A stretch of DNA of 35,148 nucleotides from Alphaproteobacteria bacterium (GTDB lineage Bacteria > Pseudomonadota > Alphaproteobacteria > 16-39-46 > JABJFC01): positions 1 through 35,148 of the forward strand of contig JABJFC010000058.1 of assembly GCA_018662925.1 (NCBI GenBank), read 5' to 3'. The notes under the pieces are model-generated. The model was not told the origin of the DNA, did not search any database, and was given only the letters and a program-made list of their open reading frames with translations. Both the position numbers and the translations under genes were made by a program. This document shows, one piece after another, positions 768-35,148 of this stretch (position 1 is its first letter; every line of letters starts with the position of its first letter).

Positions 768-867
768 GGCGTATCATTCCTTTCTTTTGGACGTTGATGA
801 TTGTGGATTCACCAACACGATACGCCACATCTCTTTTTTTGTCCGTCACCAACTTTCGCGATTAACT

Positions 868-1377: not shown

Positions 1378-1426
1378 TTTTACCTCCACTGTTTGCGGAG
1401 AGAATATTCGTTTTACCCAAACTATT

Positions 1427-2068: not shown

Positions 2069-2113
2069 AGTTCACCAGACCTTTCTTTTAGTTAAGTGTC
2101 TCCACAGGCTGTT

Positions 2114-12400: not shown

Positions 12401-14603
12401 TGGAGAAATCTATATTGCAGGAGATGGTCTAGCTCGAGGATATATTAATCAACCTGCCCTTACAGCAGAAAAATTTATTGCCAACCCTTTTGCAACCAAA
12501 GAAAATGCAAAGCAATTACAAAATCTTCGCCTCTATAAAACAGGAGATCTAGGAAAATATAACCCTGATGGCAATATTGTTTTTTGCAACAGAGTAGATC
12601 ATCAAGTGAAAATTCGAGGATATCGAGTTGAACTTAGGGAAATTGAGCATAAGATTTCTAGCTCCCATTTAGTGCAAAATTCTGTTGTGTTAGTGGATAA
12701 AACAGCAAAAAACAATAAGCTGGTCGCCTATATTGAATTAACCGCAGAGGCTTTGAAAAACCTAGAGTTTCCAAGTTCTTCTTCCTCTATTTTATCTGGA
12801 TCAAAGATTGATCAGCTGAAAGATGTTTTTTCGTCAGATTTAAAAAATTCTTTGCCTAGTTATATGATCCCCTCTATCTTTGTCTTTTTAGAAAATTTTC
12901 CACTTACCTCTAATGGCAAGATCAATAGAAAAGCCCTCTCTATCCCAAACACATCCACACCCTCTTCAGAAAGCGCTTATGCCTCTCCTTGCAATGGAAC
13001 AGAAAAAAAACTCTGCCTTATTTGGCAAGAAGTTCTGGGGCTTGAAAAAATTGGAGTTCACGATAATTTCTTCGCCCTTGGAGGTGATTCTATTAGCAGT
13101 ATTCAAATCTCTTCAAAGGCAAAACAAATCGGACTCTCAATCACTGTGAGAGAGCTGTTTCAAAGCCCAACAATTTCCCAACTTGCAAAGGGAGGGAAGC
13201 TAGGTGCCTCTGAACAAGTGAACTTTATAGACAGAGAAGAAATTCCCTTCCCAGTAACCCCCATTCAAAAACGTTTTTTTGAAGAAAAATCAAATATGCT
13301 GCATACGTATACCCAGGACATAGTCTTTTGCAGCAAAAAACCTCTCACTATTTCAAGTATAAAAAAAATCCTAGAAGAACTTCAAAAGAAGCACAGGGTA
13401 TTTTCATTACGTTACACCTGTAGTTCCAAAAAGATTCCACATTGGACCCAATACTATACAAAAAAACAAAACATTCTTTTGCAAGAATTCGATTTATCTA
13501 GTGCCCCCACAGAGACAGTCGAAGAAAAAATTTCAGAAATACGACAAAATGCAAAAGCGCTAATTAATATTATAGATGGCCCGCTGTTTGTTCTATGCCA
13601 TCTTAAAAAAAATGGAAAAAGTGATCTGCTACTTATAGCTCATCACCTTATTATAGATGCTGTATCTTGGAAAATTCTCCTTGAAGATTTTGAGTGTGCT
13701 TATAGGCTAATTTCAGAAAACAACTCCTACAATTTTATGAATAAAACACATTCATTTCAATACTGGCAAAAATCTTTAGAAAGTTATGAAAAAAATATCA
13801 CTATCAAAGAAAAAGATTACTGGAAATCCTTAGAAGAAAAGATGGTTATATGCAAACCAGAAAAAGACTTAAAAACAGGTTATGTGACTGAAAAACTGAC
13901 AACTTCTACAACAATAAAACTACTTCGAGAATCCCACAAAAAATACAACACAAGCATTAATGATCTTTTGCTGACAGCCCTTTCTTGCTCTTTATCCAAG
14001 TGGGGAAAAGCAACTTCTATGGTTGTGGAGTTAGAGGGGCACGGAAGGGAAGAGGTCGAAAAAGGAATTGACCTATCGCACACTATAGGTTGGTTTACCA
14101 GCCTATATCCCTTTGATGTAAAAACAAACCAATTTGATAGCCTAGAAAACAAACTACTCATAATAAAAAAACGGAGGGAGAAAATTCCACTAAATGGAGC
14201 AGGGTATGGTATTTACAGATTAGGCATTTCAACCCCTCAACCTCAATCACAAATTTTATTTAATTATTTGGGACAATGGACAAAGCAAGACCAAAACAGT
14301 CACCGTATATTCCATTTTTCAAAAAGTGATGATATTGCAATGTTATATAATTCACATCAAGTCGCATTTCGCCATAAGATTATCATCAATGCCGTAAGCA
14401 TAGAGAACCAATTTCATGTTCATATAGCTTACAATCCAGATACATATGCAAAACATGACATCAAAAAATTGGAGAGATTGTTTCTAGATAATGTAGAAAA
14501 AATCATCGAGCATTGCTGTAAACATACAGTTCTTAAAAAAACAAACTCTATAAGCAACAAAAATAGAAAAAATGCTATAGCACAAATACTTAAAAAGGGT
14601 TAG
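6480..14603 (+). CDS. NRPS gene 2: formyltransferase-½C-A(Ser)-T-C-A-T-E
   Basis: A bimodular synthetase of 2707 residues. Residues 4 to about 315 form a formyltransferase of the Fmt/ArnA fold with the catalytic set N95, H97 (NFHDAPLP) and D133 (KIDAGDI). About 325-540 is the C-terminal lobe of a condensation domain without HHxxxDG. A2 (568-1080) has YGPTE and Lys1077; its code DVWHISLIDK means Ser. T2 carries Ser1134. C3 starts near 1188 with HHIILDG (His1322-1323). A3 (1644-2150) has code DAWLVFGIAK. T3 carries Ser2204. E3 starts near 2257 with an intact HHLIIDA (2388-2394), EGHGRE, GWFTSLYP, NGAGYG and FNYLGQW. The start is a TTG overlapping gene 1 by 8 bp, with no clear ribosome-binding site, so expression is probably coupled to gene 1. 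Domains F-½C-A-T can start a formylated chain, as LgrA does in linear gramicidin. Confidence 0.93.
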   Translation: MPKKESPLTFCLICETSLGLVCAKKILHSGHKISAVVSQRKTVVKWAKATEIPILSNLPELQQQYKEKSFNYILSIVNNSLLTNDTLKLAERTINFHDAPLPKYAGINSAAWAIFNGEKEHGVTWHFVNSKIDAGDILVQETIPIEKNDTAQTLHLKCYKLAAETFDVLLQKISRNQLHSLKQDLNKRTYYGRHKKPATCGIINFQLSSHELWQQAKSFLYCDYQNTFCSLKVMIGSHFFSCSAIPVSSILETKVAPGRITLVEENSLQVSTSDGDLKLSNFKTLDNRQLNLENLLATNNLSLGKKLRIVTKDDLSELHSFYEEESKNEGFWINELSTAKQISSTNVSNQEKNKETLTEDCWKIDPDISRSLLALLKETEAEDLHFKLFALFIWKLYDSPLTFGFPYYRKDTAPNFKGLFSELLPLNLPKNPPMCLKKGYQDISEALNTLKGSGTFISDLLTRYPNLSPPVSHSMILNIAKEETVSIKKHGLLIANFKKNHITLMCSNKSLHPHFNWKKFHVFLKEIETALVNLDQKQSKEDAPLPTKEAIYPNALWNNTQINHNSPLLLHQYFEKQARKHPDRIAIVFKDKHLSYHYLNQQADALAYSLKEQGVESESFVGVLMDRSVELVISLLAIFKAGSVYMPFESSTPLERIKRAISQLNCKFLLTNSQFPRLTEKTIFLDKVNWSGNDAFSLFHPIEKNLSALAYIIHTSGSTGTPKAAGNTHTGIENRLLWMKKQYTIDQATIILHKTPISFDVSLWELLLPLICGSKLILAPPQAEKDPEKLCALMKKNHVTLCHFVPSLLSIFQRDSLLQKCTSLRHVICSGESLSTKNVEIFHQQSTAKLHNLYGPTEASIDVSHWTTHPPNQSQCSVPIGRPISNTKIYILNKNLEQIPISSIGEIYITGDGLARGYINQPDLTADKFIANPFATQEDICTSQNLRLYKTGDLGKYLENGNIDFCGRADQQIKIRGYRVELEEIEYNLLSSPLVCDAVVIARKESKELVAYISIEKKILKSLNTPLNASDSTLLIDPALNEISQTLREYLREKLPDYMIPHHIVFLENFPLTSSGKINRKELPAPNNTNRSINQNYAPPRNKIEKDLVLIWQEILNIHPIGIYDNFISAGGDSISSIQISSKAKTKNFHFSPRLVLEHQNIAELSQYVTQKETTHTQKATTFRKKNYALTPLQSGLLFRELYNKSISGEYIVQTVIELQGKINLEIIQIAWQEVIQAHDILRMAFVWENMGIPLQYTLDGVLFSCKSEDWSKYSKETIESKLTSFLEKDRKAPFDLSAPPLFRLSLMTLPNETFYLMWSYHHIILDGWSSRLILNDFFHVYCALIKNKKAPLKTYSYKTYLQCHEKQRKDKALDFWTKNLHCIEEPSLLVPPQKNSKELHQKRLRSSFSQNFWREVKRYSQSNNYTINTLIQASIGLVLSQLISKKTLSYGITISGRSVDLENIDHIPGLLINTLPLSIEIKKYHCIKEYLDSLQKQTLSINEHSFVSLAEIQKIALPNGDPLFDTILVFENYPSSSHSETKKGELSVKSIDSHEQNEFPLTFVFFPGKTPCLELSYKSPLFTQKEIERIAELFRETLKNLIQLHPSSLLQKISSCPKQEKETLLTKWNHYVPLVEKNFLLPHELFEQQARSLPHRIALICKKQHITYYELNQRANRLASHLRKQGIGPEVCVAVSLERDIDLVTTILSILKTGGTYLPLDFSLPEKRLNFMIKDSGAHHLITQNFSSKKISTSAGKHIDLQSIDLSNAPECNLKSEINSHHKALAYTIYTSGSTGQPKGVGLTYKNLSSLLCSDKLKILDVTKNTRSIWVSSLLFDASIWELFAALSSGGTLVIPQNSQNLVADELLDSLKKEQISYLPIPASLLSSIPLDFSNQIKTAVVFGDVPNRSALEKWSGKSKIFNGYGPTENTIASTLFLCTSPLSSPLPIGTPISNSNIYVLDEALHPTPMGIIGEIYIAGDGLARGYINQPALTAEKFIANPFATKENAKQLQNLRLYKTGDLGKYNPDGNIVFCNRVDHQVKIRGYRVELREIEHKISSSHLVQNSVVLVDKTAKNNKLVAYIELTAEALKNLEFPSSSSSILSGSKIDQLKDVFSSDLKNSLPSYMIPSIFVFLENFPLTSNGKINRKALSIPNTSTPSSESAYASPCNGTEKKLCLIWQEVLGLEKIGVHDNFFALGGDSISSIQISSKAKQIGLSITVRELFQSPTISQLAKGGKLGASEQVNFIDREEIPFPVTPIQKRFFEEKSNMLHTYTQDIVFCSKKPLTISSIKKILEELQKKHRVFSLRYTCSSKKIPHWTQYYTKKQNILLQEFDLSSAPTETVEEKISEIRQNAKALINIIDGPLFVLCHLKKNGKSDLLLIAHHLIIDAVSWKILLEDFECAYRLISENNSYNFMNKTHSFQYWQKSLESYEKNITIKEKDYWKSLEEKMVICKPEKDLKTGYVTEKLTTSTTIKLLRESHKKYNTSINDLLLTALSCSLSKWGKATSMVVELEGHGREEVEKGIDLSHTIGWFTSLYPFDVKTNQFDSLENKLLIIKKRREKIPLNGAGYGIYRLGISTPQPQSQILFNYLGQWTKQDQNSHRIFHFSKSDDIAMLYNSHQVAFRHKIIINAVSIENQFHVHIAYNPDTYAKHDIKKLERLFLDNVEKIIEHCCKHTVLKKTNSISNKNRKNAIAQILKKG
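6489..7430 (+). other. N-terminal formyltransferase domain fused to the NRPS
   Basis: Folate-dependent formyltransferases use an N-x-H pair and a downstream Asp. All three are present (N95, H97, D133), in the blocks NFHDAPLPKYAG and GVTWHFVNSKIDAGDILVQ. The AP(L)PKYAGINSAAWA form is the NRPS-associated subgroup rather than tRNA formyltransferase. In LgrA such a domain formylates the first aminoacyl-carrier before elongation. Here the likely substrate is seryl-T2, but an upstream N-methylated unit cannot be excluded. Confidence 0.8.
7450..8120 (+). other. Half condensation domain (C-lobe only)
   Basis: The stretch from EGFWINELS through FALFIWKLYDSPLTFGFPYYRK and LFSELLPLNL follows the order of the C-terminal lobe of condensation domains (FWxxxL, ...TxxGxPxxxR, ...NTLPL). 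The N-terminal lobe with HHxxxDG is missing, and the formyltransferase occupies its place. It should not form peptide bonds and probably serves as a structural bridge to A2. Confidence 0.55.
8181..10000 (+). other. Module 2 (A2-T2), serine
   Basis: The code DVWHISLIDK differs at one position from the classical serine code DVWHLSLIDK. FDVSLWELL (D760), CHFVPS and LYGPTEASID give the residues. Core motif A3 reads HTSGSTGTPK with His in place of the usual Tyr. The carrier motif is GGDSI (Ser1134), a form usual before epimerases, but a C domain follows instead. Confidence 0.8.
10041..14500 (+). other. Module 3 (C3-A3-T3-E3), D-configured residue of unknown identity
   Basis: C3 (ALTPLQSGLLF, HHIILDGWS), A3 (FDASIWELF, code DAWLVFGIAK), T3 (ALGGDSI, Ser2204) and an intact E3 follow in order. 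The code starts like Phe/Leu/Val activators (DAW) but position 301 is Phe, which I do not recognise. A hydrophobic side chain is likely. All epimerase motifs are present, so this residue should be passed on in the D form to C4 at the start of gene 3. Confidence 0.75.
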
Positions 14604-14612
14604 AAATGCCCT

Positions 14613-17600
14613 ATGTCTGATATTGAAACTTTATCCATATTATCCCCGCTTCAAGAAGGCTTGCTTTTTAGAGAGCTATACACAAAAGGGGCTGGAGGAG
14701 AGTATATTGTCCAAACTGTTATACACCTCCACGGTAAAATCGACTCAGAAGCTGTACAAATAGCATGGGAAAAAATCACACAAGCCCATGATATTTTGAG
14801 AACTGGCTTTGTCTGGGAGAATGTAGACCACCCCATTCAATATACATTAAACAAATCTGATCTTTTTTTTAGCACTGAGGACTGGTCTAAACTCTCCGAA
14901 AAATCCATTGGTTCAAACTTATCCTCATTTTTAGAACAAGATCGAAGCACCCCCTTCAATCTCTCCTCTCCTCCACTTTTTAGGGTAAAATTCCTCAAGC
15001 TCCCGAAGAATTCTTATTATATTGTATGGACTTGCCACCATATCCTCCTTGATGGCTGGAGCAGTCGACTGATTCTAAATGATTTTTTTAGTGCGTACTG
15101 TGCCACTTTAGAGAAAAAACAACCTAACTTAGCCGTAGACTCTTACACAAGTTATCTCCAATGGATTGAAAAACAAGACAAGGATTGTGCTCGTGATTTT
15201 TGGGTGAAAAACCTACAAAATATAGAAGAACCATCTTTGCTAAAGCTTTCCCAGGCAACAGAAAAAAAGACAAGCCAAAGAAATTTTATCTCTCCCCTTC
15301 CCGAAACGCTTTGGGAAAACGTTCAAAAATATGCCCAGTTAAACAACTACACAATTAATACTCTCGTACAGGCAACCATAGGACTCGTTCTTTCTCAATT
15401 AATGAACAAAAGAAATATTTCCTATGGAGTGACAATTTCTGGACGTTCTATTGATTTGAAAAATGTTCAGAACATCCCTGGTTTATTAATCAATACACTC
15501 CCACTTTCTATAGGAATAGATAGAACGCGCTCAGTAAGAACGTACCTTGACTCTCTCCAACTGCAAACACTTTCTATTAACGAGCATTCTTCTATCTCTC
15601 TTGCAGAAGTTCAAAAAAACTCCTTTCCTGGCGAAAAGGCTCTTTTCGATACAATTCTCGTATTTGAAAATTATCCCTCAAGTAACCACAGTCAATTTGA
15701 AAACTATGGATTTTCCATTAAATCTATAGACATATATGAAAAAAATGAATTCCCCCTTACCTTTGTTTTCTTTCCAGGACAGTCCCCTTATCTAGAGCTA
15801 AACTACCAAACCTCCCTCTTCTTAATAAATGAGATAGAGCGGATATCTGAACTTTTTCAAGAAACACTCAAAAATCTAATCAGCGTCCCTCCATCTTTAC
15901 TTCTACAGGAAGTCTCTAGCTTCTCTGATAAGGAAAAAGAAAAAATACTTTCTACGTGGAATAATTTTAAGATTGTTCCTCAAAAAGAAGATCTATTGAT
16001 CCACCAAATTTTCGAACAACAAGCAGAAAAAAAACCTGACCGTGTTGCCCTATTGCATGAAGGTCAACATGTTACATATGCCCAACTGAACCAGCGAGCC
16101 TACCAACTAGCTCACTATTTAAAAGAAAAAGGTGTAGGCCCAGAAACTTTTGTTGCTGTTGGTTTAGAAAGGGGCATACCTCTTATTACATCTATTTTGG
16201 CTATCTTAAAAACAGGAGGAGCTTACGTTCCCTTAGATTTATCCTTACCAAAAGAACGTCTCAAGTTCATTCTCAATGATAGCAATGCATGCTGCTTAAT
16301 TACGGAAAAAAAATACTCTGAATATCTTCTTGATTTCTCGGGAACATGCATAGATTTTCTGTCCATTCCTTTTTCTTCTCTCCCCAATAAAAACTTACCG
16401 GACGAAGTTCATTTAGACAGTAGCATCTATCTTACCTATACGTCGGGTACTACTGGAACCCCTAAAGGGATCATTAATTCTCAAAGAGGGCTTCTAAATC
16501 GATTTCTTTGGTCCCTTTCATACTACAATATAAATCAAACAGAAATTTTTTTGCAAAATGCCTCCATAGGTTTTGATATTTCATATTGGGAACTTGTCTT
16601 GCCACTACTTGTGGGATCAAAGCTTGTGATCCCCACAGATAAAAAGGCTAAAGACCCCCTACATCTTTATCAGTTGCTGATAAAAGAAAAAGTGACACTC
16701 TCTCACTTTGTTCCCTCGTTACTCAGTCAGCTTCTAGAATTTTCAAAAAAAAATACGCAACATCGATTTTTAAGAAAACTCATATGTGGAGGAGAAGTAG
16801 TCCCAAAGGAAGACCTTAACCAATTTTTAACTCTCTTCCCTCAAGCCCATTTTCATCATGCTTATGGACCAACGGAAGCTGCCATAAGCGTTACATACTG
16901 GGACATAAAGAAAGGGCCCTACTTAGAACCAAAACTTCCCATTGGACGCCCTATTAATAAGACAAAAATCTATATTTTAAATGAAGCCCTGAACCCTGTT
17001 CCCATTGGAATTATTGGAGATATTTATATCGCAGGCGATGGGCTTGCTCGAGGATATATTAATCAGCCTGACCTCACAGCGGACAAGTATATTGCAAACC
17101 CCTTTGCAACTCAAGAAGATGTAAATAATTTCCAAAATCTTCGCCTCTACAAAACAGGAGACTTAGGAAAATATCTTTCAGATGGAAATATCGATTTCTG
17201 TGGCAGAATAGATAGCCAAGTTAAAATTAGAGGATACAGAATTGAGCTTGGTGAAATTGAGCATGCACTTTCTGCTTCTTCTCTAGTGCATCAAGCAATC
17301 ATTTTGGCTCATAAAGAGGCGAAACACCAGGAACTCATCGCATATCTTCTATTAACACCCCAAACTCTAGAAAAATTCTCTTTTCCAGAAAATGCGTCCT
17401 TCTCTGTTCTCACTAGTCCTTCCATCGGAAAAATCACAAAAGTCCTTCGCCTAGAATTAGAAAAATCTCTTCCCGACTATATGATTCCTGCTCATTTCAT
17501 TTTCTTGAATGAATTTCCAATAAATTCTAACGGAAAGATTGACCGGAAAAGACTCCCCACTCCTGATAAATCAAGACGCACTCTAGAGCAAAACTATGTA

Positions 17601-20600
17601 GAACCACGCAATGAGATAGAGCAAGACCTTTGTCTTATCTGGCAAGAAATTCTAGGGCTCAATAAAATTGGAATCCACGACAATTTTTTTGAAATTGGTG
17701 GCCATTCACTTTTAGCTACACAAATTATTTCTCGCCTCCGTTCACAGTTCCAATTGGAACTTTCTCTGCGGGATATCTTTGAATATCCCACTATTTCAGT
17801 CTTCGCTACGCTGATCACCCAATCCCTTAGAAACCCAAAGGACCTAAATGTTCCCCCCATTTTACCAGCTACCCCCCAAGACCTCTTTCCTCTGTCATTC
17901 GCCCAACAACGTCTTTGGTTTTTAGAAGAACTAACTCCTAATTCTTCGGTTTATAATATTCCTATGGTATTTGAATTATCTGGGCCTCTTAATATTTTAG
18001 CACTACATAAGGCTTTTCAAAAAATCATCCAAAGACATAGTAGCCTTAGAACTTTTTTTATAAAAAAAGATGGAGTGCCCTTTCAAAAAATTCTAGCAGA
18101 TCTGGACCCTTTCGAGTTAGTTGATCTCAATGATACAGAAAATCTAGAAGATCATCTCTCTAGCATAAAGCATAAACATGCCCACATAAGGTTTGACCTT
18201 TCTAAAGGACCCCTTCTGCAGCTCACACTCTTAAAAGCAGGTCCAGAAAAAAATTTCCTCTTTATTACTATGCATCATATTATCAGTGATGGTTGGTCCG
18301 TTGGAATCTTCAATCAAGAACTTTCAATTCTCTATAGGGCCTATATTTCAGACCAAGATATAGAATTGCCTTTACTAGCTATTCAATACACAGACTTCAC
18401 CCTCTGGCAACACGCTTGGCTCCAGGGAAAAACTCTGCAAAAACAACTTACATATTGGCAGGAAAAGCTAAAAAACCTACCCGACTCGTTAAACCTTCCA
18501 GCAGACTTTCCTCGACCAAAAACTCTTTCTTACAAGGGAAAAAGATACCAGCATCTCCTCAATAAAGATCTTAGCTTAAAGGTCAAATCCCTCTGCCTAG
18601 AAGAAAATGTTTCCACCTATATGTTCCTGCTCACTACATTTAATGTGCTACTTCATAAATACAGTGGGGATGAAGATATTATTGTTGGATCCCCCATTTC
18701 TAACCGCACCCACAAAGATATCGAAGGTCTTATTGGATTCTTTGTAAACACTATTGTCTTTCGATCTAAGATATTATCCCATAGCATCTTTTATAATTTG
18801 CTGCTTGACCTGAAAGAACAATCTCTCACAGCTTACCGGTATCAAGATATCCCTTTTGAACAGCTTGTAGATCACCTAAACATTGAACGCTCTCTAAACA
18901 AAAACCCTATATTCCAAATGCGATTTGTTTATCAGAAGCAATCAGGAGAAACATTAGACCTTGAAGGAATTTCTTCACAGCCTATTCACACAGATTACGA
19001 AGCTTCTAAATTTGACCTCTTGCTACATATTTATGAGAAAAAAAACTCTGATTTTTCCATTTCTGTTGAATACATGTCAGATCTCTATAAAGACGAAACT
19101 ATTAAGAGATTTGCACATAACTATGAAGCTCTTCTGGAAAGCATTGTCTCAGACCTACACACACCTATTCATAGGTTAAATATATTGCCTCAAAAAGAAC
19201 AAAGCTTACTTTTCAATACTTGGAACAACACGTCTAAAAAACATGATGAATCTCTATTCGTTCATAATCTATTTGAAGAACAGGTACAAAAAAATCCTGA
19301 CCGTATTGCTCTTGTTTTTAAAAACCAGCACGTCACATATGAACAGCTCAATCAATGGGCGAATAAATTATCCCACTACTTGAAAGAACAGGGAGCAGCA
19401 CCAGAAACCTTTGTCGCCATCCTAATGGATCGAAGTATTGATTTTGTTGTCTCACTAATCGCCGTCTTAAAAACAGGCGGCGCATACCTTCCTCTTGATC
19501 CTAGTTTACCACCCCAGAGACTCAGTTATATTTTAAATGATTCAGCTCCTAGCCTGATTCTTTCTAACAAAGAACAACCTTCTTATATCCAAGAAAATAC
19601 CTTTGTAAATATTTCTACATTAAATCTTACAACCGAGCCCAATAACAACCCTCTCCATCAATTGCATCACCATAACCCCATCTATCTTATTTATACATCA
19701 GGCACGACTGGAAAACCAAAGGGAGTTATAGTTTCCCATGGAGCCTTGTCCAATTATGCTAAGGCAATTCTTAAGAAAATATCAGCTGCCTCTCAGATAG
19801 GTTATTGCAGCAACCCCTCTACCGATCTCGGAAACACCACCCTCTTTGCAAGCCTCATAGGAGGGAAGACCCTTCATATATTCTCTGAAGGAGAAGAGTT
19901 AGATTCCCAAATTTTCTTAGAAAAAGTGCTTGAAAAACGTCTTAATCTTATAAAGCTTACACCTTCCCATCTCCAGATTCTTTCTGAAAAATTGTCCAGT
20001 GCAACTTCTCATGCAGCACAATACTTTAAAAATAATATGCTCTGCGTTGTTGGAGGAGAAGCTCTAAGTCCCAGTCTTATTAACGCAAGGGATACAATTA
20101 ACCATTATGGCCCCACCGAAACTTCCGTGGGCGTTACAACCTATGCCTGCAAAACAGAAGAGCTTGGGGGGGGAGTTCCCATTGGAAGCCCCCTACAAAA
20201 CATAAAAATCTATCTCCTTGATAGTGCCTCAAATCCTGTTCCTATAGGTGCTATCGGAGAAATTTACATTGCAGGAGATGGTCTTGCTCGAGGGTATCTC
20301 AATCAAGCTAGCCTCACAGCAGAAAAATTTATTGCTAACCCTTTTGCAACTCAAGAAGACATTAATACTTGCCAGAACCTCCGCCTCTATAAAACAGGAG
20401 ACTTAGGGAAATATCTCCCTGATGGAAACATCACTTTCTGTGGAAGAACGGATCATCAAGTTAAAATTAGAGGACATAGAATTGAGCTAGATGAAATTTC
20501 ATCACTCCTTCAAAATCATGAAGACTTACAAACCTGTACTGTAAAAATCCTAGAAGATGGCTCAATTGCGGCATATATAATCCCAGGAAGCTTTGAACCT

Positions 20601-23600
20601 ACAGAAACAGAACTTACAACCTATTTAGAACAGTTTCTCCCTAATTACATGGTTCCTTCCTCCTTCATTTTTTTGGATTGCTTCCCCCTCACTACTAGTG
20701 GAAAGATTGACTACAAAAAGCTTCCAACTCCAGACAAAGCTGGACATTCTTTAAAAGAAAAATATGTGGCTCCTCGCACTGAAATTGAGCAAGCCATTTG
20801 CCTCATTTGGCAAGAAGTTCTCGAACTGAAGCAAATTGGTGTTCATGATAACTTCTTTAAAATTGGTGGGCACTCTCTCTTAGCAACACAAATCATATCC
20901 CGCATTCGATCTCAGTTTCAGCTAGAGTTGCCCTTGCGGGACATTTTTGAATACCCCACTATCTCAACCTTCTCTACCCTTATTACTCAGTCCCTTAGAA
21001 ACCCAAAGGACCTAAACGTTCCACCAATTTTACCAGCACCACATCAAGCCCTCTTCCCCTTATCCTTTGCCCAGCAACGTCTTTGGTTCTTAGAAGAGCT
21101 TGATCCTAATGTTTCAGCGTACAATATTCCCATGGCACTTGAAATCTCTGGCCCCCTTAACATTCAAGCCCTTTCCAAAGCTCTAAAAGCAGTTATTCAA
21201 CGACACAATAGCCTAAGAACCGTCTTTATAAAAAAAAATGGAGTCCCTTTCCAAAAAATTCTCCCAACTATTGATTCTATTGAAACCGTAGAACTTACTG
21301 ATGCAAACGACATAAAAAATAGGCTCTCTCATATCAAGAAAGATCATGCCCATACAAAATTCAACCTTTCAGAAGGTCCCTTAATCCGAATCACCTGCTT
21401 AAAGGCCTCCTCAGAAAAAACATTCCTTTTTATTACACTGCACCATATTATTAGTGATGGATGGTCTATTGGAGTCTTCAACCAAGAACTCTCTTCTTTC
21501 TACAAAAAATATCTTCAAAAAAAAGACCCAGAGCCATTCTCCCTACCTATCCAATACACAGACTTTACTATCTGGCAACATTCTTGGCTTCAAGGAGATC
21601 CCTTGCAAAGACAATTGTCTTATTGGAAAAGCAAACTAGATTCTTTGCCAGATTCATCAAATTTTCCAACTGACTTCCCTCGGCCAAAGACGCTTTCTTA
21701 TAAGGGGGAAAGGTATAGATATGCCCTTAATAAAGAACTAAGTCTAAAAATTAAAAGTCTTTGCTTAGAGGAAAACATCTCTATCTATATGTTCCTCCTC
21801 ACTGCCTTTAATGTTCTTCTGCATAAATATAGCGGGGATGAAGATATTATTGTAGGAACACCCGTTGCCAACCGAAATCACAAAGACATTGAAGGACTGA
21901 TAGGATTTTTCGTAAATACTCTGGTTTTTCGATCCAATATCTCCCCACATAAAATTTTCTATGACCTGCTTCTTGATTTAAAAGAACAATCTCTTACAGC
22001 TTATCAGTACCAAGATGTTCCCTTTGAACAACTTGTAGACCATCTCAATATTGAGCGTGCCTTAAATAAAAATCCCATATTTCAAATCATGTTCATGATG
22101 CAAAATGCTAATGAATCCTCTCGGTTCCTAGAGCTTGGAGGGACAGAAATTTCCTATATGAGTCATGAGGAAAATATTGCTAAGTTTGACTTAGAAATCA
22201 TCGCTCATGAAGATCCAAAATCACAATGCATTGGCCTCACTATTGAGTACATGACAGATCTCTACAAGAGTGAAACTATTGAAAAATTTGCGGGTCATTA
22301 TAAATCCCTTTTAAAAGAAATCACTTTGAACCTGCAAGCGCCCGTCCACACCTTAAACATACTGCTTCAAAAAGAACAAAGCTTACTGCTCAATACCTGG
22401 AATGATACTAATGAAGAGTATGGTGAACTCCCTTTTGCACATAAACTATTTCAACAGCAAGCACAGAAAAATCCTGATCGTATTGCTCTTGTCTTTGATG
22501 GTAAGCACGTTACATATGAACAACTTAACCAACAAGCCAATAGATTAGCTCACTATCTAAAAGCAGAAGGAGTTGGTCCAGAAACCTTTGTAGCTGTTTT
22601 GATGGATCGAAGCGTTGATCTTATAGTATCCTTTCTAGCTATTCTCAAATCAGGAGGTGCCTATGTCCCTCTTGACCCTAATACACCAGTCACAAGAAAT
22701 TTATGGTTTCTTGAACAGGTAAAGCCTTCTGTGCTGATTTTAGGAGAAAATTACAGGAAAACATACACAGGAAAAATCAAAACGCCTGAAATATTTGCCA
22801 CTCAATTTCATCATAAAGAAAGTTTTGATCCCTCATTTAATGAAAATTTAAATCTTCTCCTTAACCCTCTTCACATAGCATATGTAATTTATACCTCAGG
22901 ATCAACTGGAACCCCCAAGGGGACAGCAGTCCATCACCTTGGCATGCATAATCATATCAAAAGTAAAATCAAAGATTTAAAAATTACAGCCCAAGATACG
23001 ATTGCTCAAACATCAACTCAAATTTTTGATATCTCAATTTGGCAAATGCTTACCTCCTTAACCCTTGGTGCAAAAGAAGTGATTTTTTCACAAAATGAAA
23101 TTCTTGATATTAAAATCTTTTCAAAGGTTTTTTCTCTAAGCAAAATCTCCATTTTAGAGCATGTGCCATCATATACAATTCTCTTCTTAGAAGAGTTAAA
23201 AGACAAAACAAAAAAAAGTCCTTTTCGCTATTTAAAACACTACATCGTAACAGGAGAAGCCTTAACGCCCCTTGTATGCAGCACATTGCTTGATACAGAT
23301 AAAAAACTGTGTATTGTAAATGCCTATGGACCAACAGAATGTTCTGATGACGTAACCCACTACTTTCTCACTTCCCACCCTGGAAAAGAATTTTCTATCC
23401 CCATAGGAAAGCCTATTAACAATACAAAGATCTATATCCTAGATAAGGCTCTAAGCCCTGTTCCCATTGGGATAGTTGGAGAAGTTTATATCGCAGGAAA
23501 TGGCCTTGCTAGAGGATATCTCAATCAACCTGATCTCACAGCAGATAGGTTCATTGCAAACCCTTTTGCCACTCAAGAAAATATCAATAACCCCCAAAAT

Positions 23601-26600
23601 CTTCGCCTCTACAAAACAGGAGACTTGGGAAAATATCTCCCAGATGGAAATATAGACTTCTGTGGCAGAATAGACCATCAGGTCAAAATCAGAGGATACA
23701 GAATTGAGCTGGGTGAAATTGAGCATGCACTTTCTGCTTCTTCCCTAGTACATCAAGCAATTGTTGTGGCTCACAAAGACACGAAAAATCAGGAGCTTCT
23801 CGCATACATTCTATTAACCCCCAAAACCTTAGAAGAACTCTCTCCTCTAGATAATAACAATTCCTCTGCTCTCACTGGCTCCTTAATGGGAAAGATCACA
23901 AAAGACCTTCGCCTGGAATTAGAAGCAACACTTCCTGACTATATGATGCCTGCCCATTTCATTTTCTTGAATGAATTTCCACTAACTTCCAATGGAAAAA
24001 TTGACCGAAAAAAACTTCCTGTTCCTGACAAATCAAAGCGAACTCTAGAACAAAACTATGTAGAGCCACGCAATGAGATAGAACAAAATCTTTGTCTTAT
24101 TTGGCAAGAAGTTCTAGGGCTCAATCGCATTGGAATCCACGACAACTTTTTTGAAATCGGTGGTCATTCTCTTCTAGCTACACAAATTATTTCTCGCCTC
24201 CATTCTCAGTTCCAATTAGAATTACCTCTACGGGATATCTTTGAGCACCCTACCATTTCGGCATTTTCTACACTCATCACCAAAGCCCTTAGAAACCCAA
24301 AGGACTTAAATATTCCGCCAATTTTACCCGCTAGCCCCCAAGATCTCTTTCCTCTGTCATTCTCTCAACAACGCCTTTGGTTTTTAGAGGAACTGACTCC
24401 TGATGCTTCAGTCTATAATATCCCCATAGCACTTGAACTATCGGGACTTATTGACATTCAAGCACTCACAAAAGCCTTCAAGAAGGTCATTCAACGGCAT
24501 GATAGCCTAAGAACCATCTTTATAGAAAAAGATGGAGTGCCCTTCCAAAAAGTTCTTCCTACCATTGACCCTATTGAAACAATAGAGTTGACTGATAAAA
24601 AAGACCTACAGAAGAAAATTTCTCAGACAAAAAAAGACCATTCTCAGACACGTTTTAATCTTTCTGAGGGGCCCTTAATTCGCATTACCATCTTAATGGT
24701 CTCTCCTGAAAAAACATTCCTCTTTATTACTATGCACCACATAATCAGTGATGGCTGGTCTATTGGAATTTTTAATCAAGAAATTTCAACTCTCTATAAA
24801 TCCTATCTGCTAAATCAAGAACCGGAATTGCCTCTATTAGCTATTCAATATACAGACTTTACCCTCTGGCAGCACACTTGGCTCCAGGAAAAAACTCTAC
24901 AAAAGCAACTCACATATTGGCAAGATAAGCTAAAAAATCTACCCGACTCTTTAAATCTTCCAACAGATTTTCCTCGCCCAAAAACCCTTTCTTATAAGGG
25001 AAAAAGATTTAAATACCCCCTCAATAAAGACCTTAGCTTGAAGATAAAATTCCTCTGCTTGGAAGAAAATGTTTCAACCTATATGTTCCTGCTCACTGCC
25101 TTTAATGTGCTTCTTCATAAATATAGTGGTGATGAAGATATTATTGTAGGAACACCTATTGCCAATCGAGCTCAAAAAGAACTCGAGGAGCTCATTGGTT
25201 TTTTTATAAATACCCTAGTATTTCGATCCAACGTGTCACCCCATAGAACTTTTCATGGTTTATTGCAGGACATAAAGGCACAGTCTCTCTCAGCCTACCA
25301 GTATCAAGATGTTCCTTTTGAGCAACTTGTAGATCATTTAAATATTGAGCGATCTCTAAACAAAAATCCTATATTCCAAGTGCGTTTTGTGTATCAAAAA
25401 CAAACTGGAGACAACCTAACATTTGAAGGAACTTCTTCACAACCTATTCACACAGAGCATGAGTCTGCTAAATTTGATTTTTTGCTACACATCTATGAGC
25501 AAACTGATTCCTCCTTTTCTATTTCTGTTGAGTACATGACAGATCTCTATAGAGACGAAACTATTACCCAGTTTGCACAACACTATGAAACTCTCCTAAA
25601 AAGCATTGTCTCAGAACTGCACACACCTATTCATAGGTTAAATATATTGCCTCAAAAAGAGCAAACCTTACTTCTCAACACATGGAATAATACCGCTAAA
25701 AAGCATGGTAATTTTCTATTCGTTCATAAACTATTTGAACAACAAGCACAGAAAAATCCTGATCATATTGCTCTTGTTTTTGAAAACCAGCAGATCACAT
25801 ATAAACAGCTCAATCAGCGGGCAAATAAATTATCCCATTACCTGAAAGAACAGGGAGCAGGGCCAGAAACTTTTATTGCCATCCTAATGGATCGAAGCAT
25901 CGATTTTTTTGTCTCGTTAATTGCCACCTTAAAAGCAGGCAGCGCATATATTCCTCTTGACCCTAACTTACCACCCCAGAGGCTTGCTTATATCTTAAAG
26001 GACAGCAATCCTCACCTGATTCTTTCTAACAAAGAACAGCCTTCTTATATCCAAGAAAATACCTTTGTGAACATTTCCACTTTGGGCCTTAGAACCCAAT
26101 CTCATGAATCTCCCTTGGTTCCACTGCATCCTCACAATCCCATCTATCTTATTTATACATCAGGCACGACTGGAAAACCAAAAGGAGTTATAATTTCCCA
26201 TGAAGCCTTATCCAATTATACTGAGGCAATTCTTAAGAAAATATCAGCTGCCTCCCAGGTAGGTTACTGCAATGCTCCTTCTACCGATATCGGAAACACG
26301 ACTCTCTTCACAAGCCTCACAGGAGGAAAAACACTTCATATATTCTCTGAAGGAGAAGAGTTAGACTCCCAAATTTTCTTAGAAAAAGTGTTTGAAAAAC
26401 GTCTTGATCTTCTAAAACTTACACCCTCCCACCTCCAGATTCTTTCTGAAAAACTTTCCAGTGCGACTTCCCTCATGACAGAGTATTTTAAAAAGCATAT
26501 GACCTGCATTATAGGAGGAGAGGAACTAAAATCCAGCCTCATCCACGCAAAGAAGACAATCAACCATTATGGCCCCACCGAAACTTCTGTAGGTGTCACG

Positions 26601-29600
26601 ACCTATGCCTGTAAAGAAGAAGAAACTGGGCAAATAATACCCATTGGAAATCCCTTACAAAACACAAGGATTTACCTTCTTGATATTTCCCTGAATCCTG
26701 TTCCTATAGGTGTTATCGGAGAAATTTATATTGCAGGAAATGGCCTTGCTCGAGGATATCTTAACCAACCCAATCTCACAGCAAAAAAATTTATTGCTAA
26801 CCCTTTTGCAACTCAGGAAGACATTGGCACTTGCCAGAACCTCCGCCTCTATAAAACAGGAGATTTAGGGAAGTACCTCCCTGATGGAAACATTACTTTC
26901 TGTGGCAGAATGGATCATCAAGTTAAAATTAGAGGACATAGAATTGAGTTAGGGGAGATTGAATCTCTCCTCCAAAGTCATGAAGACCTGAAGGCCTGCA
27001 GTGTAACAGCCCTAGAAAATCGCTCAATTGCAGCATACATAATCCCAGGAGATTTTGAGCCTACAGAAACAGAACTCATATCTTATTTAGAGAGTAAGCT
27101 TCCTGCCTATATGGTGCCTGCCCATTTCATCTTCTTAAGTGAGTTTCCCCTAACTTCTAGCGGAAAAATTGATTACAAACGACTTCCAAACCCAGATAAA
27201 TCAGAGCGCTCTTTAGAGGAAAAATATGTAGCCCCTCGCAATGAAGTTGAACAAGAGCTTTGTCTCATCTGGCAAAAGGTTCTCAAACTGAGGCAAATTA
27301 GCATTCACGATAATTTCTTTAAAATCGGCGGGCATTCTCTCTTAGCAACACAAATAATTTCTCGCGTCCGATCCCAGTTTCAAGTGGAATTACCTCTGCG
27401 AGATATTTTTGAATACCCGACCATATCAACCTTCTCCACGCTCATTAGTCAGTCTCTTAGAAACCCAAAAGACCTAAATGTTCCACCAATTTTGCCAGCA
27501 CCCTCTCAAGAGCTCTTCCCCCTGTCCTTTGCCCAGCAACGCCTTTGGTTTCTAGAAGAGCTGAGCCCTGATGTATCAGCTTATAACATTTCCATGGCAC
27601 TTGAAATCTCTGGCCCTCTTAATATTCAGGCCCTTGCCAAGGCTCTGAAGGTAATTATTCAAAAACACAATAGCTTAAGAACCGTCTTTATAAAAAAAGA
27701 CGGAATCCCCTTCCAAAAGATTCTAGAAGATATTGATCCTATTGAAACCATAGAACTGACTGATACAGATGACATAAAAAACAGACTGTCTGAAGTAAAA
27801 AGAGAACATACCCATATAAAATTCAACCTTTCAGACGGACCATTAATCCGTATTACTATCTTAAAGGCTTCTCCAGAAAAAACTTTTCTCTTTCTTACCC
27901 TACACCATATTATTAGTGATGGATGGTCCATTGGAGTATTCAATCAAGAACTATCTTCTCTCTATAAAAGCTATCTTCAAAAACAAAATTTAGAATTATC
28001 TCCACTACCTATCCAATATACAGACTTTACTATCTGGCAACGTTCTTGGCTCCAAGGGAAATCCCTGCAAAGGCAATTGACTTACTGGCAAAATAAACTA
28101 GATGGTTTGCCAGACTCTTCAAACCTTCCAACCGACTTTCCTCGACCTAAAACACTGTCCTATAAGGGAGGAAAATATGGCTATAAAATTAATAAAGACT
28201 TGAGTCTGAAAATTAAAAAACTTTGTTTGGAGCAAGGCATCTCCACCTATATGTTCCTCCTCACTGCTTTTAATGTACTGCTTCATAAATATAGTGGGGA
28301 GGAAGACATTATTGTGGGAACTCCTATTGCCAATCGAAACCACAAGGATATCGAAGAACTCATTGGATTCTTTGTGAATACTCTAGTGTTTCGATCTAGT
28401 GTGTCACCTCACAAAACCTTCCATGACTTGCTTCTTGATTTGAAAGAACAATCCCTCACAGCCTATCAGTATCAAGATGTTCCCTTTGAGCAACTTGTAG
28501 ACCATCTCAATATTGAGCGTGCCCTAAATAAAAATCCCATATTTCAGGTCATGTTCATGATGCGAAATGCCAACGAATCCTCTCGTTTCTTAGAACTTGA
28601 AGGAACAGACATTTCCTATCTAAATCGTGAAGAAAATATTGCTAAGTTTGACTTAGAAATTACGACCCATGAAGACCAAAAGTCACAATGCATTGGCCTA
28701 TCTGTTGAGTATATGACAGATCTCTATAAGCACAAAACAATCGAGAGGCTAACTCAACACTATGAAACTCTCCTGAAGGACATTGTCTCAAATATACAGG
28801 CTCCTGTTCATACCTTAAATATACTGTCCCAAAAGGAACAAATTTTCCTTCTGCACGCTGGGAATAATACTGCTGAAAAGTATGATGAATATCCTTTTGT
28901 ACATAAAATATTTGAACAACAGGCACAAAAAAATCCTGATCGAATTGCCCTTGTCTTTGATGACCAACACATTACATACGCACAGCTTAATCAACGCTCA
29001 AATCAATTGGCTCATTATCTAAAGGCACAAGGAGTTGGACCTGAAAAATTTGTGGGCATTCTAATGGAACAAAAAATTGATTTGATAGTTTCCTTGCTAG
29101 CCACGATCAAAGCAGGAGGCGCCTATGTCCTCCTTGACCCTAAATTACCGCCTCAAAGGCTTAACTATATATTGAAAGATGCGACTCCCCTTCTGATCCT
29201 TTCTAATAAAGAACGCCCTTCACACCTACAAGAAGGTGAAGTTGTAAACATTTCTACCTTAGACTTCTCAGCTCAACCTAATGAAATTCCCTTGATTCAA
29301 CTACACCCCCACAACCCCATTTATCTTATCTATACATCAGGCACGACTGGAAAACCAAAGGGAGTTATAATCTCCCACAGAGCTCTTTCCAATACAATGT
29401 GTAGCAAGAGCTTTAGAGAGGCAATAAAAAACTCAAAATCCATCTTAAATATTACAAATCTTTCTTTTGATATTTTTAATTTAGAAATCTATCTGCCCCT
29501 TATATATTGCAAAAAATTGCTTCTTCACAATAAGAACAAGGAGGCCCTTGAATCAATAATTACAAAACAAAAAATTGACTTCATTCAAATCACACCCTCC

Positions 29601-32600
29601 CATCTTCAATCTCTTGCGGAAAATATTTCCTCAAAAAGTTTGAAAAAAATATCTATTTTATGTGGGGGAGAAGCCGTCACAAAATCATTACGGAAAAATA
29701 TCCTAAACTCCCTTTCTTCTATAGTCTATGGACCAACAGAAACGACAATTTGGTCAACTAAAACACAGGACAACTCCATCTCTGAGAACAATGCTATAGG
29801 AAAACCTATTAGTAATACGAAGGTCTATATATTAGATAAACATCTGAATCCTGTCCCCATTGGAGTGGTTGGAGAGATCTATATTGCCGGAGTTGGACTA
29901 GCCCGTGGGTATGCAAATCAACCTGATCTTACAGCAGATAAATTCATTGCAAACCCTTTTATAATCGAAGAAGACATCAAAAATTCTGAGAACCTACGCC
30001 TCTATAAAACAGGCGACTTGGGGAAATATCTTCTAGACGGCAGTATGGAGTTCTGTGGTAGAGTAGACGATCAAATAAAAATTAGGGGTCATAGAATAGA
30101 GCTTGGAGAAATCGAGCACGCCATTTCTGCTTCCTCTTTAGTGAGCCGAGCAATTACTCTCTCCCCTCAGGATAACAATAACCAAAAGCTCATTGCCTAT
30201 CTAACCTTAACTCAAGAAGGCCTAAACTCTCTCTCTCTTCCAAGGGGAACAACGCCCTATATTCTTACCGGCCCCTCCATTGGGAGATTAGCAGATACAC
30301 TACGCATGGAATTAAAACAATCTCTTCCCGACTATATGATTCCTAGCCACTTCATTTTCTTGAGGGAATTTCCCCTAACTCCTAATGGAAAAATTGACCG
30401 AAAAAAACTTCCTGTTCCTGATAAATCAATGAGCTCTCTAGCTCAAGAATATGTAGCCCCTCGCAATGAGATAGAACAAACTCTTTGTGCTATCTGGAAA
30501 GAGGTATTAGGACTCAACCAAATTGGCATCCATGATAACTTCTTTAAAATCGGTGGCCATTCGCTTTTAGCTACACAAATAATCTCCCGAATCCAGCCTC
30601 ACTTTCAGGTGGAGTTGCCCCTCCGGGATATCTTTGATAACCCTAACATCTCAAGTCTTTCCTCCCTTATTACCCAATACCTTAAAGACTCAAAGAAATT
30701 TCAAATCCCTTCTATTGTCCCTGCACCACCCCAAGAGCTCTTTCCTCTTTCCTTTGCCCAGCAACGACTTTGGTTTCTAGAAGAATTAAACCCTACTGTT
30801 TCAGTTTATAACATTCCCATGGTACTAGAAATATCGGGAAGTCTTGATGTTCAAGCCCTTACTAAGGCCTTAAAAATAATTATTCAAAGACATGATTCCC
30901 TCAGAACTGTCTTTATAAAAAAAGATGGTATACCCTTCCAGAAAATTCTTCCCACTATTGATCCTATTGAAATAATAGAAATCACTGATACAAATGATCT
31001 GAAAAAGAAAATTTCTCAAACTAAAGAAGATCATTCCCCTACACGATTTAATCTTTCTGAAGGCCCTTTGATTCGCGTTTCCATCTTAAAAGCCTCCCCA
31101 GAAAAAACCTTTCTCTTCATCACCCTCCACCATATTATCAGTGATGGCTGGTCTATTGGAGTTTTCAATCAAGAACTCTCATTTCTCTACAAAACCTATC
31201 TTTTAAAAAACAACCAAAAATTACCCGCCCTTCCTATTCAGTATACAGACTTTACTATCTGGCAAAATTCTTGGCTTCAAGGCTCTCCTCTGCAGAAACA
31301 GCTTTCTTATTGGAAAAACAAACTAGACAACCTACCAGACTCATTGAATCTTTTAACTGATTTCCCTCGACCAAAAATTCTTTCCTATAAAGGAAAAAGA
31401 TATAGATGCATTCTTAGCAAAGAACTGAGCGCAAAAATCAAAACTCTCTGTCTAGAAGAAAGTATCTCCACCTATATGTTTCTATTCACTGCCTTTAATG
31501 TGCTTCTTCATAAGTATAGTGGAGACGAAGATATCATTGTGGGGACGCCCATTGCTAACCGGACTCACAAAGATATTGAAAGCCTGATTGGATTCTTTGT
31601 AAATACATTGGTATTCCGATCTAATGTATCCCCTTACAAAACGTTCCATGAATTATTGCTTGATTTAAAAGAACAATCTCTTGCAGCCTATCAGTATCAA
31701 GATATTCCTTTTGAGAAGCTCGTTGACCACCTCAATGTTGAGCGCTCTCTAGATAAAAATCCTATCTTTCAAGTCATGTTTATGATGCGAAACGATAGAG
31801 ACTTTGCCCAACCCTTAGTTCTTGAAGGAACAAATGTTTCTTATATGCATAATGAAAATAATATTTCTAAATTTGACCTAGAAGTCGTTGCCCATGAAAA
31901 TCCAGAATCACAATGTATTGGTTTGACTTTTGAATACATGACAGACCTGTACAAAGATGAAACAATTGAAAGGCTCTCGCAACACTATGAAACTCTCCTA
32001 AAAAATACTATCTCCAACCTAAAAACACCAGTTCATTCCTTAAGTGTCTTGCCTCAGAAAGAACAAGCCTTAATTCTCAAAACCTGGAACAACACTATTG
32101 AAAATTATGCTGGACCAGCCTTCATCTACGAGATTTTTGAACAACAAACCCTAAAGACCCCAGATCGCATTGCTCTTGTCTTTGACAATCAGCATATCAG
32201 TTACACTCTATTAAACGAGAAGGCAAATCAACTGGCTCATTATTTAAAAGAGCAAGGAGTTGGACCAGAAATCTTTGTAGCTGTCCTAATGGATCGAAGC
32301 ATTGACCTTGTAATCTCCTTGTTGGCAATCCTCAAGGCAGGAGGTGCCTATGTTCCCCTTGACCCTAATCTGCCACCCCAAAGACTTAACTATATCTTAA
32401 AGGACGCATCTCCTCTCCTGATTCTTTCAAATGAGAAATGCCCCCCTCACATACAAGAAAGTATATTTATTTCTACTCCTTCCCTAAATCTGGAAAAGTA
32501 CTCCAAAAAAAATCTACCCACTCTGCTGAATCCACAAAACCCCATCTATCTTATCTATACATCAGGCACGACTGGAAAGCCCAAAGGTGTAGTAGGAGTG

Positions 32601-34691: not shown

Positions 34692-35050
34692 CGCTTCTTA
34701 GAAACCTTAGACACAAAGTGCGGTGTTGGATCCATCTTTATACCTGCTAATCTTAGAGCATTTCCTGGAAAGATAATTCCATTGGTATAGATTTCATTGT
34801 TCAAAAGGTAAGTGGATTTTTTATAGGGATTATAGAAGTGATCACCATCTCTTGAGAAAGGAGCCAAGTTCAAGCAAGGTTCTCCAATATCATCATTATG
34901 AAAAATTATTGTGAATCCAGACCAATCAAGATGCTTTCTCTCCGCAACACGATCCTCCCCTTCATGTACACAAATTTTTACGTAGCTTATGAACTCTTTT
35001 TTTTTCTCATATACCCTTCGTGAATAAAAGTATGGACTTTTAGGAGGCAT
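34628..35050 (-). pseudogene. Fe(II)/2-oxoglutarate oxygenase (IPNS-like), N-terminal half missing
   Basis: The 140-residue frame matches the C-terminal catalytic half of isopenicillin N synthase-like oxygenases, which are usually about 300 residues. The HxD iron ligands are HLD in RKHLDWSGFT (codons near 34925-34933). The distal His is in PTPHFVSKVS (near 34718-34720), and the 2-oxoglutarate-binding RxS is RHS (34685-34693). Everything before about YVKICVHEG is absent, and an IS630 gene starts 20 bp upstream in the opposite direction, so insertion or deletion has removed the front half. The frame stays open upstream of the ATG at 35048-35050 into IS630 sequence. It may be a remnant of a tailoring hydroxylase, but its original function cannot be read. 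Confidence 0.7.
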
Positions 35051-35069
35051 TACCTTATAAGCTATTGTT

Positions 35070-35148
35070 ATGAAGACGTTTTTAAGCCAATCAGAAGAAG
35101 AACAGCTAAGAAAGCAGCATAGGCGAGAGAAAAACGGTCGAGTTCGAG
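35070..35148 (+). CDS. IS630-family transposase, N-terminus only (cut by window edge)
   Basis: The 26 visible residues begin MKTFLSQSEEEQLRKQHR and continue REKNGRVR. This matches the opening helix of IS630-type transposases (a 'LSxxExxxLxxxHRxERDxRVRDRIK' pattern), ahead of the helix-turn-helix and DDE domain. The start is the ATG at 35070. The rest lies beyond the window, so whether the gene is intact is unknown. The element abuts the truncated oxygenase gene. Confidence 0.72.
   Translation, partial: MKTFLSQSEEEQLRKQHRREKNGRVR

What the first reader, a model, noticed from the sequence alone, without database searches (positions are those of the whole stretch)
17880..30690. Four consecutive modules predict Asp-X-Asp-Gly, the calcium-binding motif of calcium-dependent antibiotics
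A5, A6, A7 and A8 codes read DLTKVGHVGK (Asp), DIWEITADDK (Dab-like), DITKIGHVGK (Asp-like) and DILQLGVIWK (Gly). Asp-X-Asp-Gly is the conserved ring motif of daptomycin, CDA and friulimicin-type lipopeptides, which come from high-GC actinobacteria. Here it appears in an AT-rich, IS-ridden genome, without a lipid-starter C domain and with a formylating start. The codes are read directly; the calcium role is inference. A siderophore using Asp and Dab is the main alternative.
Basis: partly seen in the sequence, partly recalled or inferred. Interest (0 to 1): 0.85.

Follow-up and report, generated by a model that had tools for sequence, protein, structure and literature searches.

The report
Asp-Dab-Asp-Gly peptide synthetase in intracellular bacterium
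An energy-scavenging, probably intracellular alphaproteobacterium carries a large, intact peptide-making enzyme whose code predicts the order Asp-Dab-Asp-Gly; this order arose by copying one two-module block and lacks the other hallmarks of daptomycin-type calcium antibiotics.

Summary
The reading of the codes is right: anchored on GrsA, A5-A8 give DLTKVGHVGK, DIWEITADDK, DITKIGHVGK, DILQLGVIWK (Asp-Dab-Asp-Gly). The step to calcium-dependent antibiotics is not supported as membership. The line has 8-9 modules, but canonical Asp-X-Asp-Gly antibiotics all have ten-residue rings. X should be L (no E domain; C7 is LCL type), whereas in the canonical members I could check X is D or Gly. There is no lipid-starter C domain; the start is a formyltransferase. 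Asp-X-Asp comes from a local tandem duplication (16938-22681 and 23400-29143, 80.8% identical, dN/dS about 0.17). Elsewhere in the 1.83-Mb genome lie three NRPS-type TauD hydroxylases, two operons resembling 4-hydroxyphenylglycine synthesis, a Sfp-type PPTase, and two ATP/ADP translocases, the mark of an intracellular energy parasite. Its only TonB receptor sits in a mercury-type operon, which weakens the siderophore reading. Best reading: a live synthetase for a formylated, acidic, probably hydroxylated octa/nonapeptide that is exported; target unknown. Metal binding (Ca or Fe) is open. The surprise is less the motif than such a synthetase, with hydroxyphenylglycine-type genes, in an energy-parasite genome.

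The parts
2096..6487 (+). NRPS 1: A1 (DIVQITFIYK) - methyltransferase - T - E-type domain whose second active-site His is Ser (HSLVADSIS, probably inactive)
   Evidence: Pfam; motif read; code
6480..14603 (+). NRPS 2: formyltransferase - degenerate linker - A2 (DVWHISLIDK, Ser) - T - C3 (DCL type) - A3 (DAWPVFGIAK) - T - E (HHLIIDAVSW intact)
   Evidence: Pfam; codes; C typing
6480..7469 (+). Formyltransferase domain (formylating start; NFH...D residues present)
   Evidence: PF00551 E 9.7e-19; NCBIfam formyltransferase models; 35-40% identical to F domains of L054 and L086
14613..34691 (+). NRPS 3: C4(DCL type)-A4-T-C5-A5-T-C6-A6-T-C7-A7-T-C8-A8-T-C9-A9-T-TE, 6692 aa, no stop
16011..17579 (+). 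A4, code DIWHIGAISK, core nearest to Ser-type cores; substrate unassigned
17877..19211 (+). C5, LCL type (LPADFPRP)
   Evidence: LPxDxxRP rule from PMC1894796
19272..20747 (+). A5, code DLTKVGHVGK = Asp (same code as the characterised beta-OH-Asp module of tistrellabactin)
21051..22388 (+). C6, LCL type
22449..24041 (+). A6, code DIWEITADDK, Dab-like; core nearest to L162 DIWEVTADDK
24339..25676 (+). C7, LCL type: its donor is Dab, hence predicted L
25734..27209 (+). A7, code DITKIGHVGK = Asp-like; 80% identical to A5
27507..28850 (+). C8, LCL type; 81% identical to C6
28911..30434 (+). A8, code DILQLGVIWK = Gly
30732..32075 (+). C9, LCL type
32136..33695 (+). A9, code VSWESSLSDK, no Asp235; closest core is L032 VDWVTSLADK (beta-alanine-like code)
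33963..34688 (+). Thioesterase (GYSYGG), release or cyclisation
   Evidence: PF00975 E 2.9e-11
16938..22681 (+). First copy of the two-module duplication (end of A4 - T - C5 - A5 - T - C6 - start of A6)
   Evidence: blastn self-match 80.8% over 5758 bp to 23400-29143; sharp edges inside A domains and dS 0.75, dN 0.13
23400..29143 (+). Second copy of the duplication (end of A6 - T - C7 - A7 - T - C8 - start of A8)
3..1389 (-). Transposase remnants (IS256/Mutator family and IS6/IS240 family) bounding the cluster on the left
   Evidence: Pfam; blastn
34992..35148 (.). Repeated sequence shared with the ends of contigs C16, C84 and C90 (IS630-like by my reading), bounding the cluster on the right

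Best explanation
A working three-protein non-ribosomal assembly line in an intracellular, energy-scavenging alphaproteobacterium. It starts with a formyltransferase rather than a lipid-loading domain. Predicted product: formyl-Ser, a D-residue (A3), an unassigned residue (A4), then Asp-L-Dab-Asp-Gly, then a beta-alanine-like residue (A9), released or cyclised by the thioesterase; the place of the N-methylated A1 residue is unresolved. The Asp-X-Asp arrangement came from an in-frame tandem duplication of one Asp-containing block; the A6 and A8 cores lie outside the copied block and differ (Dab and Gly). The two Asp are probably beta-hydroxylated by the NRPS-type TauD enzymes elsewhere in the genome, and a hydroxyphenylglycine-type residue may fill an unassigned position. 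The peptide is probably exported by an MsbA-like ABC transporter encoded beside the tailoring genes and acts outside the cell, on the host or on competitors. Shown: domain order, codes, duplication, purifying selection, C-domain types, presence of the tailoring genes. Inferred: substrates, hydroxylation, link of the other contigs to this synthetase, export, role.
For: Codes. All C-superfamily domains and all NRPS-type A domains found in the genome lie on this contig, so the tailoring genes have no other synthetase in the assembly except an F-domain fragment at the end of contig C65. Duplication with dN/dS about 0.17. LCL signature LPxDxxRP in C5-C8 and its lack in C3/C4, PDB neighbours agreeing. 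TauD x3 with 42-46% identity to the TauD beside a siderophore receptor and Asp modules in G054, and a TauD + type II thioesterase + F-NRPS set in the related genome G002. Sfp-type PPTase next to TauD. HPPD/HmaS-like + FMN dehydrogenase + aminotransferase operons x2 with ABC transporters. Two ATP/ADP translocases, none in 14 control genomes.
Against: No product is known. The E domain of the first protein lacks its catalytic His and that protein has no C domain, so part of the line may be decayed. C3 is DCL type although module 2 has no E domain. The tailoring genes lie on other contigs (IS-broken assembly), so their link is by exclusion only. A1, A3, A4 and A9 substrates are unassigned; A4 could not be shown to be a hydroxyphenylglycine domain. 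The Asp code can also accept Asn (PMC12283262).
Confidence: 0.6

Rival explanations
1. A beta-hydroxyaspartate siderophore: A5 and A7 Asp are hydroxylated by the TauD enzymes and chelate Fe(III).
For: A5 code is identical to the OH-Asp module of the siderophore tistrellabactin (PMC10391617). A5/A7 cores group with Asp cores of the G054 cluster, which has a TauD and a receptor above the NCBIfam siderophore-receptor cut-off. Three related TauD genes in this genome.
Against: The only TonB receptor of the genome is below the siderophore-receptor cut-off (165 against 223.5) and sits with TonB, MerT, HMA and DUF3179 genes. No hydroxamate or catechol ligand gene was seen near the NRPS-type genes. The T domains after A5/A7 are GGHSL, not the GGDSI named for the tistrellabactin system. 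Core-tree support for the G054 grouping is only 0.68.
Confidence: 0.22
2. A true calcium-dependent antibiotic, reached by convergence: the acidic peptide folds round Ca2+ through Asp-X-Asp-Gly and binds a cell-envelope lipid.
For: The motif itself. Proteobacterial calcium-dependent octapeptides with OH-Asp exist (empedopeptin, PMC8069584). Hydroxyphenylglycine-type genes are in this genome; CDA also contains that residue (own knowledge).
Against: Canonical Asp-X-Asp-Gly members all have ten-residue rings (PMC12650660), lipid initiation, and D or Gly at X in the members checked (PMC9113097); here 8-9 modules, no lipid loading and L-Dab at X. Empedopeptin also has a lipid starter domain.
Confidence: 0.12
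3. A decaying synthetase, no longer making a product.
For: IS elements at both ends; inactive-looking E domain in the first protein; truncated PPTase and F-NRPS fragments on other contigs.
Against: Three full-length ORFs including 6692 aa without a stop in an AT-rich genome; dN/dS about 0.17 between the duplicated blocks; catalytic motifs otherwise intact.
Confidence: 0.06

Closest known systems
Daptomycin-family calcium-dependent lipopeptides (daptomycin, A54145, CDA, friulimicin, laspartomycin)
   Same: Predicted Asp-X-Asp-Gly run; final thioesterase; acidic peptide; CDA also uses hydroxyphenylglycine (own knowledge)
   Different: Formyl instead of lipid start; 8-9 instead of 11-13 modules, so no ten-residue ring; L-Dab at X; Asp modules made by local duplication; alphaproteobacterial
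Beta-hydroxyaspartate siderophores of alphaproteobacteria (tistrellabactin type; the G054 cluster here)
   Same: Identical Asp code; related TauD hydroxylase; A5/A7 cores nearest (weak support)
   Different: No siderophore receptor with the cluster; no second and third ligand type recognised
Formylation-domain synthetases (LgrA of linear gramicidin; F-NRPS of rhizobial plasmids and Legionella lytica; Photorhabdus F-NRPS)
   Same: Formyltransferase fused before the first A domain
   Different: Different peptide; degenerate linker between F and A; Asp-rich second half
Empedopeptin/tripropeptin-type calcium-dependent octapeptides of proteobacteria
   Same: Proteobacterial, about eight residues, OH-Asp likely, dioxygenase tailoring
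   Different: Lipid starter C domain and no Dab or Gly there; dual C/E domains there, separate E and LCL domains here

Membership tests
Calcium-dependent lipopeptide antibiotics (canonical Asp-X-Asp-Gly) | Asp-X-Asp-Gly in the peptide | tested here: met
   Predicted by codes A5-A8; not shown chemically
Calcium-dependent lipopeptide antibiotics (canonical Asp-X-Asp-Gly) | Ten-residue macrocycle | tested here: not met
   Nine A domains in all, eight if the first protein does not feed the chain; ring size rule from PMC12650660. Module iteration cannot be excluded
Calcium-dependent lipopeptide antibiotics (canonical Asp-X-Asp-Gly) | D-amino acid or Gly at X (as in the members read in PMC9113097) | tested here: not met
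   Dab by code; no E domain in protein 3; C7 has the LCL signature LPTDFPRP and LCL neighbours
Calcium-dependent lipopeptide antibiotics (canonical Asp-X-Asp-Gly) | Lipid initiation (FAAL/ACP with CIII, or starter C domain) | tested here: not met
   Formyltransferase at the start, no complete C domain before A1 or A2; the three AMP-binding proteins outside this contig are not beside NRPS-type genes as far as read
Calcium-dependent lipopeptide antibiotics (canonical Asp-X-Asp-Gly) | Common descent of the Asp modules | tested here: inconclusive
   A5/A7 nearest each other; whole-domain tree puts A2-A9 in one clade (0.987); core tree nearest G054 siderophore-type Asp cores (0.68); best of 395 actinobacterial genomes 338 bits against 528 for A8 of the same protein. 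All this speaks against common descent, but named daptomycin/CDA synthetases were not in hand
Calcium-dependent lipopeptide antibiotics (canonical Asp-X-Asp-Gly) | Calcium-dependent activity | not testable with these tools
   Needs the compound
Beta-OH-Asp siderophores | Asp module plus Asp beta-hydroxylase | tested here: inconclusive
   Code met; TauD relatives on other contigs; their substrate is unknown
Beta-OH-Asp siderophores | Cognate TonB-dependent siderophore receptor | tested here: not met
   One TonB receptor in the genome, below the siderophore cut-off and in a MerT/HMA operon; the assembly is 96.7% complete, so a missing gene is possible
Formylation-domain NRPS | Formyltransferase domain fused N-terminal to the initiating A-T | tested here: met
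   catalytic N-H-D read
Formylation-domain NRPS | N-formylated product | not testable with these tools
   Needs the compound

The most novel reading that the evidence does not exclude
A non-lipidated, formylated, hydroxyaspartate-containing peptide that binds calcium through a convergently evolved Asp-X-Asp-Gly, made by an intracellular energy parasite as an antibiotic or host-directed effector: a calcium-motif peptide outside the free-living lipopeptide producers, arisen by one module duplication.
Probability: 0.1. Interest if true: 0.85.

Novelty: new member of a known kind. Interest (0 to 1): 0.5.

Why it matters
It shows how an Asp-X-Asp-Gly prediction can arise by a single tandem module duplication, so the code run alone should not be taken as proof of a calcium-dependent antibiotic. 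It also places a live, nine-module synthetase with hydroxyphenylglycine-type and hydroxylase genes in a 1.8-Mb genome with ATP/ADP translocases, a lifestyle from which large natural-product lines are rarely reported (own knowledge; a Holosporales review searched has no mention of NRPS or polyketides, though this genome is not known to belong there). If a product is found, whether it serves the symbiont, the host or the killing of rivals becomes testable.

Tried and rejected
The 16S search gave nothing, so class was set by rpoB; the first rpoB run used wrong-strand ORFs of GC-rich genomes and was redone. Genome contigs found only 29-39% identical relatives, many of them Photorhabdus: no orthologous cluster. 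A close search of 385 alphaproteobacterial genomes at E 1e-110 found only this contig. I considered that the linker after the F domain is the C-terminal lobe of a C domain: the relative L054 matches weakly (i-E 5e-5), the window does not, so I do not claim it. I considered A4 as a hydroxyphenylglycine domain from code likeness; its core groups with Ser-type cores, so it is left open. Contig-end matching gave no join of C65 to this contig. No Rfam family in the window. No structure was predicted: it would not settle the substrate or metal question.
Full report
What is there. The window is a whole contig (G000:C58) of a 1.83-Mb, 91-contig genome. rpoB places it in the Alphaproteobacteria, nearest to two 1.9-Mb genomes of the same order at 73%. 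Two ATP/ADP translocases, absent from all 14 control genomes, point to an intracellular energy parasite. Three ORFs on the + strand, overlapping by 8 bases and then 9 bases apart, form one synthetase operon bounded by IS remnants. Protein 1 is A-MT-T-E, protein 2 F-A-T-C-A-T-E, protein 3 six C-A-T modules and a thioesterase.

The codes. I anchored the nine A domains on the GrsA phenylalanine domain, whose fragment was checked against PDB 1amu. A5's code is the one of the characterised OH-Asp module of tistrellabactin, a siderophore of Tistrella (PMC10391617). It is also found in some Asn domains (PMC12283262). In a tree of the specificity core, A5/A7 group with the Asp domains of the G054 cluster (support 0.68), A6 with a Dab-coded domain (0.93), A8 with Gly domains, and A9 lies next to a beta-alanine-type code. 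A1, A3 and A4 stay unassigned.

Origin of the motif. Positions 16938-22681 and 23400-29143 are 80.8% identical over 5758 bases. Identity falls sharply at both edges, which lie inside A domains, so the block carries one Asp module and its flanks but not the cores of A4, A6 and A8. dS is 0.75 and dN 0.13, so both copies have been under purifying selection. C5/C7 are 73% and C6/C8 81% identical, A5/A7 80%. Asp-X-Asp is therefore a local duplication, and Gly after it is the only further coincidence needed.

Stereochemistry and start. C5-C9 carry the DFPRP form of the LPxDxxRP motif described for LCL and absent from DCL domains (PMC1894796); C3 and C4 lack it. PDB neighbours agree: C7 is nearest to Txo, TycC and fuscachelin-type domains, C3 to McyB, PvdL, surfactin and TycB domains (the LCL or DCL roles of those proteins are my own knowledge). 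Protein 3 has no E domain, so Dab should be L. Only A3 is followed by an intact E domain; the E-type domain of protein 1 has Ser for the second His. The start is a formyltransferase domain; there is no lipid-starter C domain.

Against the calcium family. Canonical Asp-X-Asp-Gly antibiotics have exclusively ten-residue rings (PMC12650660). The members read in PMC9113097 have D-Ala, D-Lys or Gly at X and lipid initiation. These three features fail here. Among 395 actinobacterial genomes the best match to A5/A7 is 338 bits, against 528 for A8 of the same protein. One actinobacterial locus (L147) shows the contrasting layout: Asx, X with E domain, DCL-Asx, Gly. Named daptomycin or CDA synthetases were not available, so descent was tested only against this sample. 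A convergent calcium binder is not excluded: empedopeptin is a calcium-dependent octapeptide of Massilia with hydroxylated Asp (PMC8069584).

The rest of the genome. TauD-family genes lie on C16, C65 and C90. The C65 and C90 copies are 84% identical, and all three are 42-46% identical to the TauD of the G054 cluster, which neighbours a receptor above the siderophore cut-off and Asp modules. In G002, a relative of the same order, a TauD, a type II thioesterase and an F-NRPS start lie together, so the association is older than this genome. C16 and C65 each carry an HPPD-like protein, an FMN-dependent dehydrogenase and an aminotransferase, with an ABC transporter. This trio matches the known hydroxyphenylglycine pathway HmaS-Hmo-HpgT (own knowledge). 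At the C-terminal position where HPPDs have Phe (GFGxGNF) the two proteins have Ile and Val. S. coelicolor Hms has Phe350, Gly351, Ser352 and Ile355 in its gate (PMC3720870), which fits the Ile. This supports, but does not prove, hydroxymandelate synthase. C90 also holds a Sfp-type PPTase and a type II thioesterase.

Siderophore or not. For: Asp code, TauD relatives, core grouping. Against: the one TonB receptor of the genome lies with TonB, MerT, HMA and DUF3179 genes and is below the siderophore cut-off. I put the siderophore at 0.22 and calcium-dependent action at 0.12.

Unexplained. Protein 1 has no C domain and an inactive-looking E domain, so where its N-methylated residue goes is unknown. 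C3 is DCL type although module 2 has no E domain. The F-NRPS fragment at the end of C65 has no continuation in the assembly.

Verdict. The more unusual facts are the setting and the accompanying genes.

Noticed in passing
L085:3944-8249 (G000:C16) and L086:502-6681 (G000:C65): Two operons with HPPD/HmaS-like, FMN-dependent dehydrogenase, aminotransferase and TauD genes, resembling 4-hydroxyphenylglycine synthesis, in an intracellular-type alphaproteobacterium; Phe-to-Ile/Val at a C-terminal position that differs between HPPD and hydroxymandelate synthase.
   Followed up: partly
L086:8810-9679 (G000:C65): A second formyltransferase-NRPS start, cut by the contig end, with no continuation found in the assembly.
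   Followed up: partly
L054:5086-11473 (G002:C62): TauD, type II thioesterase and F-NRPS start together in a relative of the same order.
   Followed up: partly
L089:334-4831 (G000:C25): Two SagB-like dehydrogenases (one above the TIGR03605 cut-off), a TauD-like protein and an ABC transporter: possible RiPP cluster.
   Followed up: no
L090 (G000:C41): The only TonB-dependent receptor of the genome lies with TonB, an HMA protein, MerT and DUF3179.
   Followed up: yes
window 5165-6451: E-type domain of protein 1 reads HSLVADSIS, lacking the second active-site His.
   Followed up: yes
L147 (actinobacterial G534:C19): NRPS with Asx, X plus E domain, DCL-Asx, Gly across two ORFs: a possible calcium-antibiotic-like line.
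   Followed up: no
window 1829-1862: Perfect 34-base palindrome upstream of the operon (self-complementary match), possibly a terminator or operator.
   Followed up: no
G054:C1:1276000-1312000 (L040, L041): Siderophore-type NRPS cluster with TonB siderophore receptor, TauD and Asp, Gly, Ser modules; nearest cores to A5/A7.
   Followed up: partly
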